Below, piece after piece: positions 40,010-48,056 of a stretch of DNA of 64,000 nucleotides (position 1 is its first letter; every line of letters starts with the position of its first letter). The stretch is from assembly GCA_900696525.1 (NCBI GenBank), contig CAADGL010000022.1, forward strand, positions 62,001 to 126,000. The letters run 5' to 3'. The translations under genes and the position numbers were made by a program. Source of the stretch: an uncultured Planctomycetota bacterium. GTDB lineage: Bacteria > Planctomycetota > Phycisphaerae > UBA1845 > Fen-1342. A model generated the notes under the pieces. The model saw only the letters and a list, made by a program, of their open reading frames with translations. It did no database searches and was not told the DNA's origin.

Positions 40010-41182
40010 ATGAGTCAGGCGACCACTCTCACGCCCCGCCCGACAGCGGAGCCCACCGATTTCCAGCGCCGCCTGGTCACGCACGCCGATGCTGCCGTCG
40101 AATGGCTCGCGCGCTCGATCGCGGCATGCGGCGGGCGCGGGTCGGCGGCGTATTACTCGCGCTGGTATCGCCCGGCGCGGGGCTGGGCGCCCCCCTATCC
40201 CGAAACAACCGGGTACATCATCGAGACGCTGATCGCCCACGCGGACTTCGCCCGGCGGCCCGAGCTCATTGAGCTCGCACTGAGTCAGGCCGACTGGATC
40301 CGCACGCTCCAGGAAGACGACGGCGCCCTGCCCGGCGGCTGGATCGCCGGCGGCCGCAAGCCGCCACCGTCGATCTTCAACACGGGGCAGATGATCCTCG
40401 GCCTGGTCGCGGCCGGCGACCGCAGCGGCGACGCGGCCTGCCTCGAGAGCGCCCGGCGGGCGGCTTCGTGGCTGGCCGGGCAGGTAGATTCGGCGACGGG
40501 CACGTGGATGGCGCACTCGTACGTGGCGGGGTACAGCCCGGCGTATTACACGCGGGTGGCGTGGCCCGTGCTCGAGGTGTGGCGGCGCACGGGCGATTCG
40601 GCGCTGAAGTCGGCGGCGGTGCGTGTGCTGGACACAATCGCGGGCTGGCAGCAGCCCAACGGCGCGATCCGCAACTGGGAGTTTCGCCCCGGCCAACCGG
40701 CCTTCACGCACACGATGGCCTACACCATACGCGGGTTTCTCGAAAGCGCGCGCCTCCTCGGCAACGAGGGAGACAGGTTCTTCGACGTGGCGCTGCGCGC
40801 CGCGGACGCGGTCCGGCGGCGCATGGAGCTGCGCGGACGCCTGGCCGGGGCGTATGACGCGGAGCTGCGCGGCCGATACTGGTATACGTGCCTGACCGGC
40901 AACTGCCAGTTCGCCATCGCCTGGATGAAGCTCGGCGACCGGACGCGGGACGCACGGTTCCTGAGCGCGGCGCTCAAGGCGCTGGAGTTCGTGACGCGGC
41001 GGCAGTCGCTCGGCGCGATCGATCCGAACGTTCGCGGCGCGATCGCGGGGTCGAGCCCGCTGTGGGGACGCTACCTGACGCTGCGATACCCGAACTGGGC
41101 GGCCAAGTTCTTCGTTGACGCCTGTCACGCGGCGCACGCGCGCCTTCAGCGGCTGGTAGAGGACGGCCCGTGCGGCTCGTAG
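40010..41182 (+). CDS. alpha/alpha-toroid (terpenoid cyclase/glycosidase-like) protein of polysaccharide locus type
   Basis: Repeated helical repeats with aromatic/Gly motifs (YPETTGYIIETLI, QEDDGALPGG, GWQQPNGAIRNWEF); ATG 40010. Confidence 0.65.
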   Translation: MSQATTLTPRPTAEPTDFQRRLVTHADAAVEWLARSIAACGGRGSAAYYSRWYRPARGWAPPYPETTGYIIETLIAHADFARRPELIELALSQADWIRTLQEDDGALPGGWIAGGRKPPPSIFNTGQMILGLVAAGDRSGDAACLESARRAASWLAGQVDSATGTWMAHSYVAGYSPAYYTRVAWPVLEVWRRTGDSALKSAAVRVLDTIAGWQQPNGAIRNWEFRPGQPAFTHTMAYTIRGFLESARLLGNEGDRFFDVALRAADAVRRRMELRGRLAGAYDAELRGRYWYTCLTGNCQFAIAWMKLGDRTRDARFLSAALKALEFVTRRQSLGAIDPNVRGAIAGSSPLWGRYLTLRYPNWAAKFFVDACHAAHARLQRLVEDGPCGS

Positions 41183-42021
41183 TGACCAGCGGCTACGGCC
41201 GCAGCCTGCACGCCATCGCCCTGCTGCACCAGCTACGGGCACGCGGCCACGACGTGGCGCTGTGCCTCAGCGTCCGCCTGCTCAACGCCGCGCGCATCCG
41301 CTTCTACGTCCGCCAGCTCGGCTGGCGCAGGTTCTGGCGCAAGGTCTCGGCCAAGCTCCGCGGCGGCGCGCAGCCGCACTCGCACGCCGGCAGCGCGGCG
41401 GGCGAGGTGGCCGCGATGCGGCGCTATCTCGACCACGCCGGAATCGGCTCGCGCTCCGTTGCCGCGGCCTGCGCGGCGCTCGGCGTCCGCGAGGTGCGCG
41501 TCGGTACTCTCAACGACGACGCGGCGCTGTCGGCGCTGCGCGCGGCGCGGCCCGACCTCGTCGTCTACGCCGGCGGCGGCATCCTGCGCCGGCCGCTGCT
41601 CGACATCCCGCGCCTCGGCGTGCTGAACGCGCACGGCGGGCCGCTGCCGGCATTCCGCGGAATGAACTCCGGAGAGTGGGCGCTCTTTCACGGCGTGACG
41701 CCCGAGGTCACCGTGCACTTCATCGACGCCGGCGTCGACACCGGGCCGATCCTGCTGCGGCGGCCCGTGCCGGTCGAATCCTGGCAGGACATCCCCACGG
41801 GCCGCGGCGAGAGCACGCGCGCCAGCGTCGAGGCGCTGCTGGAGGCGGTGGACCTCGTCGCGCGCGGCGGCTACGAAGTTCAGCCGCAGTCTCCGGACGA
41901 CGGCCGGCAGTTCTTCGTCATGGCCGAGCCGCTGCTGGAGGTCGTGCAGCGCTGGATCGCCGACGAGCGCACGCCGGTGCGGACGGCGGCCGAGTTCCGC
42001 TGGCCTTCGCGGCCGGGATAG
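41170..42021 (+). CDS. formyltransferase family protein (GARF/Fmt fold)
   Basis: GVLNAHGGPLPAFRGMNSGEWALFHGVTPEVTVHFIDAGVDTGPILL: N-H-D catalytic residues retained; overlaps upstream stop by 13 bp. Confidence 0.88.
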   Translation: MRLVVTSGYGRSLHAIALLHQLRARGHDVALCLSVRLLNAARIRFYVRQLGWRRFWRKVSAKLRGGAQPHSHAGSAAGEVAAMRRYLDHAGIGSRSVAAACAALGVREVRVGTLNDDAALSALRAARPDLVVYAGGGILRRPLLDIPRLGVLNAHGGPLPAFRGMNSGEWALFHGVTPEVTVHFIDAGVDTGPILLRRPVPVESWQDIPTGRGESTRASVEALLEAVDLVARGGYEVQPQSPDDGRQFFVMAEPLLEVVQRWIADERTPVRTAAEFRWPSRPG

Positions 42022-42035
42022 AATCGCGAGAGCGC

Positions 42036-45925: not shown

Positions 45926-46917
45926 AGCTCCGGGCCGGCGGACTGCTGATTCTCGCGACGTGGCCGGTCGCCGCCGGCCGGGCCGAGCTCGACGCCGCCG
46001 GCCCGTTCGCAACGGCGATCGCGGCGGCTGAGCCGCGCGTGGTGAAGATCTACGGCGGGCAGATCGGGCGCGTGAAGGGGTACGGGAGCGGCGTGCTGGT
46101 GTCGGCGGACGGCCAGGTGGTGACGGTGCTGTCCAGTCTGCTGGAGAGCGACGTGCCGCGCGTCGTGCTGTCGGACGGCCGCCGGCTGCCGGCGGTGGTC
46201 ATCGGCCGCGACCGCGTGCGGCAACTGGCGCTGTTGAAGATCGACGCGCTGGACCTGCCGCATTTCGAACTCGGCGGCAGCGATCATCTGCGGGCCGGCG
46301 ACTGGATCATCGCCGCGGCCAATCCGTTCAAGGTCGCGGACGGACCGGAGCCGGTATCCTTCTCGGCGGGGCTGTACGGCGGCCGCACGACGCTGCAAGC
46401 TCGTCGCCGGGCGCAGGAGCTGCCCTATAGCGGCGAGGTGCTGCTGACCGACATGATCGTCTCGGCGCCCGGCGCCGCGGGCGGGGCGCTCGTGGACGTG
46501 AACGGCAGTCTCGTCGGACTCATTGGCAAGGAAGTCATCAGTGAACGGACGAACACCTGGCTGAACTACGCGCTGCCGGTCGAAGAGCTCGCCGCGTTCG
46601 TGGCGAATCCGAACCCCACTCACCGTTCGACGGCCGTGACCGGCGCCGAGCGCCTCGACCTGGGGATCCGCCTGTTCGACGTCGGCGGCCGCGTCCGGCC
46701 CGCGTACGTCGAGCGCGTGCGCCATGGCTCGCCGGCGGCCGCCGCCGGTGTCCGCGCCGACGACCTGATTCTCAGCGTCGGCGGCCGGAGCATCGGCTCG
46801 TGCGCGGACTACGACGACGCGCTGCGCGGCTTGCGCCCGGGACCGGTCGAGCTGGTCGTGAAGCGCGGGGACGACGTCCTGACACTCGTCCTTGAGCTGC
46901 AACGGAGCAACCCATGA
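45922..46917 (+). CDS. HtrA-like PDZ protein lacking catalytic triad (pseudoprotease)
   Basis: GSGVLVSADGQVVTVLSSLLES (His lost), RQLALLKIDALDLP (Asp lost), SAPGAAGGALVDVNGSLVGLI (Ser to Ala), PDZ SPAAAAGVRADDLILSVGG; GTGA overlap. Confidence 0.85.
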   Translation: MKLRAGGLLILATWPVAAGRAELDAAGPFATAIAAAEPRVVKIYGGQIGRVKGYGSGVLVSADGQVVTVLSSLLESDVPRVVLSDGRRLPAVVIGRDRVRQLALLKIDALDLPHFELGGSDHLRAGDWIIAAANPFKVADGPEPVSFSAGLYGGRTTLQARRRAQELPYSGEVLLTDMIVSAPGAAGGALVDVNGSLVGLIGKEVISERTNTWLNYALPVEELAAFVANPNPTHRSTAVTGAERLDLGIRLFDVGGRVRPAYVERVRHGSPAAAAGVRADDLILSVGGRSIGSCADYDDALRGLRPGPVELVVKRGDDVLTLVLELQRSNP

Positions 46918-48056
46918 GCCCGACCGGCCGTTTGCGGCGCTGGATGATCGGCGCGGCCGGCGCAGCGGCGCTCCTGACGGCTGCGCCGCACGCGTCTGCG
47001 AGCCCGCTCGCCGCGCCGGACGCGGCGCTGCGCGACGCGCAGGCACGCGTTTTTCGCGCAGCGCTCGAAGCGGTGTCGCCGCTCGTTGTGCGCATTGAGA
47101 CGGTCGGCGGCGCGCCGCCGCTGCGCCAGGACGCTTCGGGCGAGATCGTGACGGCGCCGGGGTTCGTTCAGGCCGATGGGCCGACGACCGGCGTGATCTG
47201 GACGAGCGAGGGCCACGTCCTTACCAGCAGCTTCAATTTCGCGCGTGAGCCGGCGGTCATCGTTGTCCGCCTCCAGGATGGGCGGCGGTTCGTGGCCCGG
47301 CTGCTGGCGCGCGACACGGTCTCGCGACTGGCCCTGCTCAAGATCAACGCCGACGGGCTACCCACGCCAACCTGTGCCCCGCCGGACCGCCTCGTGCCCG
47401 GGCGGTGGGCGCTGGCCGCCGGCCTGGGCCACGGCTCCTCCGTTCCGACCGTGTCCATCGGCATCATCAGCGCCGTGCGCCGCGCCAACGGAACGGCCGT
47501 CCAGACTGACGCCAAGCTCAGCCCGGCGAATTACGGCGGCCCGTTGTTCGACATCGAGGGCCGCGTGCTCGGCATCTGCGTGCCCATCAGCGACAACGAC
47601 GGCGACGAGCTGGCCGCCGCGGAGTGGTACGACTCCGGCGTGGGCTTCGCCATCGACTGCGAGCACATCGCGCGGCGCCTGCCGCGGCTCATGGCCGGCG
47701 AGAGTCTCGAACGCGGCATGCTCGGCGTCGCGCTCATCGACGGCGAGCGCGTCGTGGGCTCAGAGACCGCCGAACCCGGGGGCGTGACCGTCGTCGGCGA
47801 TCCGATCGGCCCGGCCGCCGCCGTGGGGCTGCGCGCCGGCGATGTCATCGTTGCGATCGACGGCGAAGCCACCCCGCGCCTGCTCGAGTTCCGGCGCGCC
47901 ATGGCCCGCCGGGCGGCCGGCGACGAGATTGAGCTCTCAATCCGGCGCGAGGCCGGAACGAGCCGCGTGCGGCTGCGGCTGGCGCGGGCCGCCGAGCTGC
48001 GCCACCCGGCGATGCCGCCTGAACAGGCGGCGACGCGTCCGGCATCGGGCGGCTGA
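46914..48056 (+). CDS. second HtrA-like PDZ protein lacking catalytic triad (pseudoprotease)
   Basis: EGHVLTSSFNFARE (His lost), SRLALLKINADGLP (Asp lost), LSPANYGGPLFDIEGRVLGI (Ser to Tyr), PDZ GPAAAVGLRAGDVIVAIDG; ATGA overlap. Confidence 0.85.
   Translation: MSPTGRLRRWMIGAAGAAALLTAAPHASASPLAAPDAALRDAQARVFRAALEAVSPLVVRIETVGGAPPLRQDASGEIVTAPGFVQADGPTTGVIWTSEGHVLTSSFNFAREPAVIVVRLQDGRRFVARLLARDTVSRLALLKINADGLPTPTCAPPDRLVPGRWALAAGLGHGSSVPTVSIGIISAVRRANGTAVQTDAKLSPANYGGPLFDIEGRVLGICVPISDNDGDELAAAEWYDSGVGFAIDCEHIARRLPRLMAGESLERGMLGVALIDGERVVGSETAEPGGVTVVGDPIGPAAAVGLRAGDVIVAIDGEATPRLLEFRRAMARRAAGDEIELSIRREAGTSRVRLRLARAAELRHPAMPPEQAATRPASGG

What the first reader, a model, noticed from the sequence alone, without database searches (positions are those of the whole stretch)
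40010..48056. Coupled operon: alpha/alpha-toroid, formyltransferase, heparinase, one active and two dead HtrA-like proteins
Six consecutive genes on one strand overlap or nearly abut: toroid stop overlaps the formyltransferase GTG by 13 bp, 14-bp gap to heparinase, TGATG to protease, then GTGA and ATGA overlaps. The first HtrA-like protein keeps the His/Asp/Ser motifs (TNFHVV, GDIVAF, GNSGGPL). The second and third have the same trypsin-fold plus PDZ layout but lack all three catalytic residues (VTVLSSLL/RQLALL/GAAGGAL and LTSSFNF/SRLALL/NYGGPL). Inference: one working protease with two pseudoprotease scaffolds or adaptors, tied to a surface-glycan module (formyl transfer plus uronate-polysaccharide lyase). 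I know of no described system with this composition.
Basis: partly seen in the sequence, partly recalled or inferred. Interest (0 to 1): 0.82.

Follow-up and report, generated by a model that had tools for sequence, protein, structure and literature searches.

The report
Conserved HtrA protease with two pseudoproteases

Summary
All six genes, their junctions and the quoted motifs are in the sequence as described. The finding holds two separate things. (1) The toroid-formyltransferase-heparinase genes are an independent glycan module that sits elsewhere in relatives. None of 20 relatives' trio loci and none of 80 named planctomycete loci has a glycan gene beside the protease genes. (2) The three HtrA-like genes are a real conserved unit. 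The order active HtrA, pseudoprotease 2, pseudoprotease 3 is kept in 63 of 80 named Planctomycetota loci. In those loci the triad is intact in 63/63 HtrA, 0/68 ps2 and 0/80 ps3. Each paralogue is one clade (100% support), so each pseudoprotease arose once, anciently. HtrA and ps2 are fused into one protein in several separate lineages. In a 151-genome phylum sample, ps2 never occurs without ps3. Normally the trio ends a collinear operon: MoxR, DUF58, BatA, VWA-like, coiled-coil, TPR-like, NPCBM, then the trio. In the window's genome that operon is on another contig without the trio, so the trio moved as a block. Most likely it is a hetero-oligomeric periplasmic protease with one catalytic and two non-catalytic subunits; that step is inferred. 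I found no description of it in the papers searched.

The parts
44279..45925 (+). HtrA1: catalytic S1C protease (trypsin domain + PDZ + about 170-aa C-terminal region of unknown fold), 548 aa, with a signal-peptide-like N-terminus
   Evidence: Pfam/NCBIfam; triad H85/D118/S200 (codons 44531-44533, 44630-44632, 44876-44878) intact in all 81 orthologue rows that cover it; C-terminal region has no Pfam or PDB sequence match
45922..46917 (+). ps2: pseudoprotease, trypsin fold + PDZ, triad replaced by S71/Q101/A186
   Evidence: 0 of 88 orthologue rows intact; none has His; fused to HtrA1 in several lineages
46914..48056 (+). ps3: pseudoprotease, trypsin fold + PDZ, triad replaced by F107/R138/Y207 (motifs TSSFNF and SPANYGGPL)
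   Evidence: 0 of 98 rows intact; AlphaFold2 model mean pLDDT 82.8, best Foldseek hits DegP/DegQ/DegS
44277..44281 (+). TGATG junction heparinase/HtrA1: the junction created by the relocation of the trio
   Evidence: relatives have the NPCBM gene here instead
42036..44279 (+). heparinase II/III-like polysaccharide lyase; belongs to the glycan module, not to the trio
   Evidence: homologues on other contigs than the trio
41170..42021 (+). formyltransferase (Formyl_trans_N); glycan module
   Evidence: same position between toroid and heparinase in G011 and G004
40010..41182 (+). alpha/alpha-toroid (weak GH127-like); glycan module

Best explanation
The real unit is an ancient three-gene HtrA cassette of Planctomycetota. 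SHOWN: one catalytic HtrA and two different, permanently triad-dead HtrA paralogues are kept together in fixed order, co-inherited, and repeatedly fused (HtrA with ps2). They normally form the 3' end of a MoxR-DUF58-BatA-VWA-coiled-coil-TPR-NPCBM gene row. In the window's genome they have been moved as a block behind a glycan module. INFERRED: the three proteins are exported and form a mixed HtrA oligomer in which HtrA1 alone cuts. The two dead trypsin domains cannot cut but keep their PDZ domains; they act as subunits that sense ligands or peptides and set the assembly and activation of HtrA1. The substrates are envelope proteins handled by the MoxR/Bat machine. The Phe/Tyr pair that fills the dead centre of ps3 is probably structural.
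For: Order HtrA1-ps2-ps3 in 63/80 named loci from several planctomycete groups, including Planctopirus, Gimesia, Thermoguttaceae, Gemmataceae and Phycisphaerae. Dead triads fixed in every ps2 and ps3 row. Three clades, each about 100% supported, so one origin each. HtrA1-ps2 single-frame fusions in 8/63 named loci and in G070, G172, G182, classic evidence for physical association. ps2 in 30 genomes, all of which also hold ps3, even when unlinked in G110 and G123. 46 of 68 ps2 stops lie in an ATGA/GTGA context with ps3. The fusion is modelled as two complete HtrA protomers. MoxR/DUF58/BatA/NPCBM identified upstream.
Against: No interaction, activity, localisation or expression data. Pairwise identities of ps2 and ps3 correlate more with each other (r 0.85) than with HtrA1 (0.66-0.69), so ps2-ps3 could be the tighter pair. 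In some lineages the genes are scattered, so a shared operon is not obligatory. HtrA1 could be a homotrimer with ps2/ps3 acting separately.
Confidence: 0.6

Rival explanations
1. The pseudoproteases work apart from HtrA1, as PDZ-bearing chaperones or ligand-binding proteins of the envelope, with no mixed oligomer; linkage only reflects co-regulation with the MoxR/Bat operon.
For: Genes scattered but kept in G110/G123 and lone ps3 loci; in the best-known bacterial HtrA case, MamO/MamE, MamO binds metal and no direct contact with MamE was detected (PMC4794232).
Against: Repeated HtrA1-ps2 fusions, fixed order, and trio moved as one block away from the rest of the operon in this genome.
Confidence: 0.25
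2. One reading: all six genes form one functional unit in which the protease trio processes or protects a formylated uronate-polysaccharide system.
For: Tight overlaps at all junctions in this genome, no promoter- or terminator-like site above the shuffled expectation between them; co-transcription here is plausible.
Against: No glycan gene beside the trio in 20 relatives or 80 named loci; glycan triple elsewhere in G004 and G011 without the trio; the same dead-triad trio exists in lineages with another neighbourhood.
Confidence: 0.06
3. The heparinase-HtrA junction is an assembly error, so this genome has the normal operon and no relocation.
For: The genome is a draft in 22 contigs; no second genome of the genus was available to check the junction.
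Against: The junction is an exact TGATG between two intact ORFs, and on C12 the NPCBM gene is followed directly by an intact convergent gene; both ends look natural. The trio occurs once in the genome. Even if true, the trio itself is unaffected.
Confidence: 0.08
4. ps2 and ps3 are active proteases with shifted or non-canonical catalytic residues.
For: A few ps2 keep Asp at its position and one fragment has Ser at the Ser position.
Against: No ps2 or ps3 row has His at the His position (0 of 186) and no conserved replacement triad is seen; ps3 carries Phe and Tyr in nearly all rows.
Confidence: 0.01

Closest known systems
MamE / MamO of magnetotactic bacteria (HtrA protease plus HtrA-family pseudoprotease; PMC4794232)
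   Same: Active HtrA next to a trypsin-fold pseudoprotease of the same family; the dead partner is needed for proteolysis by the active one
   Different: One pseudoprotease, fused to a TauE domain and binding metal; magnetosome island. Here there are two pseudoproteases, each in its own clade, in many planctomycete lineages, with a MoxR/Bat operon
CspBA-CspC of Clostridioides difficile (PMC6464247)
   Same: One active protease and two pseudoproteases in one transcription unit, with the active one fused to one pseudoprotease and the other encoded downstream; pseudoproteases are proposed signal receptors controlling the active one
   Different: Different protease fold (subtilisin-like, from general knowledge), spore germination; convergent, not homologous
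DegP / DegQ / DegS (S1C HtrA family)
   Same: Trypsin domain + PDZ; ps3 model and all three sequences match them best
   Different: Homo-oligomers with intact triads (general knowledge); no obligate pseudoprotease partners
Bat operon (MoxR, DUF58, BatA-E) of Bacteroides and spirochaetes (for example PMC3557215, abstract only)
   Same: MoxR AAA ATPase, DUF58 and BatA-N-terminal proteins collinear with VWA-like, coiled-coil and TPR proteins
   Different: Planctomycete row adds an NPCBM protein and ends with the HtrA/pseudoprotease trio
Plant Deg5-Deg8 (HtrA pair; PMC3640471, abstract only)
   Same: Two HtrA paralogues acting in one compartment
   Different: Not one active member with two triad-dead ones; in a plant organelle

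Membership tests
HtrA / S1C serine protease family (HtrA1 gene) | Trypsin-fold domain followed by PDZ | tested here: met
   Trypsin_2 98.3 bits, PDZ_2 34.5 bits; PDB hits DegP/HtrA
HtrA / S1C serine protease family (HtrA1 gene) | His-Asp-Ser triad | tested here: met
   81 of 82 rows H/D/S, the other truncated before the His
HtrA / S1C serine protease family (HtrA1 gene) | Trimeric assembly | not testable with these tools
   Only single-chain models are possible; the fused HtrA1-ps2 model shows two complete protomers
HtrA family pseudoproteases (ps2, ps3) | HtrA fold kept | tested here: met
   ps3 model matches DegP/DegQ/DegS with probability 1.00
HtrA family pseudoproteases (ps2, ps3) | Triad lost and fixed in all orthologues | tested here: met
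   0 of 88 ps2 and 0 of 98 ps3 rows intact
HtrA family pseudoproteases (ps2, ps3) | No proteolytic activity | not testable with these tools
   Needs an enzyme assay
MamE/MamO system | MamO TauE domain and NCBIfam MamE/MamO cut-offs | tested here: not met
   MamO scores 26-47 bits and MamE 44-101 bits against a cut-off of 800; no TauE domain
Bat/MoxR operon association | MoxR AAA_3, DUF58 and BatA genes collinear with the trio | tested here: met
   Six relatives' extended gene rows; Pfam on L160; NPCBM found in 54 and TPR gene in 47 of 84 loci
Bat/MoxR operon association | Association kept in the window's own genome | tested here: not met
   Operon on C12, trio on C22
   0 of 20 relatives, 0 of 84 loci

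The most novel reading that the evidence does not exclude
An obligate mixed HtrA oligomer, with one catalytic and two distinct, fixed non-catalytic subunits, is the proteolytic arm of the planctomycete MoxR/Bat envelope machine. It would be an independently evolved HtrA version of the CspB-CspA-CspC layout, in which the dead subunits are the signal receptors.
Probability: 0.35. Interest if true: 0.85.

Novelty: new variant of a known kind. Interest (0 to 1): 0.63.

Why it matters
Bacterial pseudoproteases are known from few cases (MamO, CspA/CspC). Here two separately inactivated HtrA paralogues have been kept beside one active HtrA deep into the history of Planctomycetota, a phylum with unusual envelope biology, while databases name ps3 'serine protease Do' or 'trypsin-like peptidase'. 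The natural HtrA1-ps2 fusions and cultured hosts such as Planctopirus make subunit mixing and the role of dead subunits directly testable. It also hints at a protease partner for MoxR/Bat machinery, whose function is still open.

Tried and rejected
Glycan coupling: rejected by synteny. Recent decay of ps2/ps3: rejected by fixed motifs, about 36-42% median identity across the named loci and single-clade origins. Defence system: PADLOC gives only a weak generic match of HtrA1 to the trypsin part of RT-Protease_XI and none for ps2/ps3. The P. limnophila essential-gene paper discusses a large Planctomycetes-specific operon (Plim_0410-0401), but it is annotated as type II secretion, not this one; its supplementary tables could not be read. 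MoxR-vWA conflict systems of PMC7159879: no matching trio found in the passages read. HtrA1 C-terminal region: no Pfam or PDB match. First attempt to align single ps2 rows to the fusion put them on the wrong half, so the fusion was modelled without them. No tRNA, and no repeats that would mark a mobile element, around the trio.
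Full report
OBSERVATION. Pfam confirms a weak GH127-like toroid, a formyltransferase, a heparinase II/III-like protein, and three proteins with Trypsin_2 plus PDZ. By alignment to each other, HtrA1 has H85/D118/S200, ps2 has S71/Q101/A186 and ps3 has F107/R138/Y207.

TWO MODULES, NOT ONE. In 20 relatives the trio was located by protein search and up to 20 kb around it was read. No toroid, formyltransferase or heparinase homologue lies there. 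In G011 and G004 the toroid-formyltransferase-heparinase triple is intact on other contigs than the trio and is followed by other genes. In G018 and G008 the heparinase is followed by a reading frame that looks like a sugar-nucleotide dehydrogenase (judged by eye). A search of 84 loci that hold trio genes with the three glycan proteins gave no hit.

THE TRIO IS CONSERVED. Of these 80, 63 carry HtrA1, ps2 and ps3 in that order on one strand; 8 more have too little sequence upstream to tell, and 9 have ps3 alone. Named hosts include Planctopirus hydrillae and Gimesia. In the 80 loci, HtrA1 is H/D/S in 63/63 rows, ps2 intact in 0/68 and ps3 in 0/80 (which also counts the 20 relatives, partly the same genomes). 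ps3 keeps Phe and Tyr at the His and Ser positions in nearly all rows.

HISTORY. In a maximum-likelihood tree of 76 sequences, HtrA1, ps2 and ps3 each form one clade with about 100% support, apart from the other HtrA proteins of the window's genome. Each inactivation therefore most simply happened once, before the sampled lineages split. The tree has no certain root. Median pairwise identities are 0.48, 0.36 and 0.42, with correlated divergence, strongest between ps2 and ps3 (r 0.85).

PHYSICAL LINK. HtrA1 and ps2 form one open frame in 8 of 63 named loci, in four of the first relatives (some of these are the same genomes), and in G070, G172 and G182. They fall in several separate branches of the tree, so fusion probably happened more than once.

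CO-OCCURRENCE. In 151 phylum genomes of at least 90% completeness, ps3-type proteins (E below 1e-88) occur in 31 and ps2-type (E below 1e-69) in 30; every ps2 genome has ps3, and the exception is a 1340-contig assembly. They are adjacent in 28 of 30. In G110 and G123 ps2 and ps3 are unlinked but both kept. The set is patchy: most sampled genomes lack both.

NORMAL NEIGHBOURHOOD. Clustering of flanking genes found four conserved genes upstream on the same strand: NPCBM (52 loci), a TPR-like protein (47), and two large coiled-coil or membrane proteins (46 and 40). Reading further in six relatives gives PQQ/TPR, a cyclase-like protein, MoxR, DUF58, BatA, a VWA-like protein, two coiled-coil proteins, TPR, NPCBM, HtrA1, ps2, ps3 (Pfam for one relative, where VWA is below its cut-off). 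In the window's genome the same row, up to NPCBM, is at C12:596-615 kb and is followed by a convergent unrelated gene; the trio is on C22. The trio has thus been moved as a block. An assembly error is unlikely because both break points are clean gene junctions, but it was not excluded.

MECHANISM. HtrA proteases work as oligomers, generally trimers (general knowledge). Fusion, fixed order, stop/start overlaps and strict co-occurrence point to a mixed oligomer in which HtrA1 cuts and ps2/ps3 are non-catalytic subunits. MamO, a pseudoprotease, is needed for MamE proteolysis without its own active site (PMC4794232). In C. difficile, CspB is fused to pseudoprotease CspA with pseudoprotease CspC downstream, and both are proposed germinant receptors (PMC6464247). 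These are analogies, not homology tests. The link to envelope maintenance rests on the Bat-type neighbours only.

LITERATURE. Searches for planctomycete HtrA pseudoproteases and for MoxR/BatA in planctomycetes found no description of this trio. The library lacks most subscription journals, so absence is weak evidence. A survey of PDZ proteins notes many copies in planctomycetes; the word 'inactive' does not occur in it.

VERDICT. The protease/pseudoprotease trio is an ancient planctomycete unit and a new variant of a known kind; the glycan genes are bystanders.

Noticed in passing
G000:C12:596000-615999 (L166): The window genome's own MoxR-DUF58-BatA-VWA-like-coiled-coil-TPR-NPCBM row, ending without the trio.
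   Followed up: yes
L110, L123, L130, L101, L104, L095, L137, L148, L154: ps3 alone with thousands of bases upstream but no HtrA1, ps2 or Bat-operon gene nearby; in G110 and G123 ps2 and ps3 are far apart and HtrA1 is beside neither.
   Followed up: partly
window 45404-45922: About 170-aa C-terminal region of HtrA1, present in most orthologues but missing in the short HtrA1-ps2 fusions, with no Pfam or PDB sequence match.
   Followed up: partly
L113, L139, L141 and other Planctomycetia loci: ps3 carries a long C-terminal extension with a second PDZ-like match; Phycisphaerae ps3 lacks it.
   Followed up: no
window 30339-39952: Further glycan genes upstream: group 1 glycosyltransferase, xylose-isomerase-like protein, flippase-like membrane protein and a fused two-part E1/transketolase-type dehydrogenase (36407-38743).
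   Followed up: partly
window 52631-56407 (- strand): Two long reading frames whose start looks like an M16-type peptidase pair by eye; no NCBIfam match for the first and no Pfam match for the second.
   Followed up: no
G018:C339 and G008:C226: Heparinase homologue followed by a reading frame resembling UDP-glucose/GDP-mannose 6-dehydrogenase, suggesting a uronate polysaccharide.
   Followed up: no
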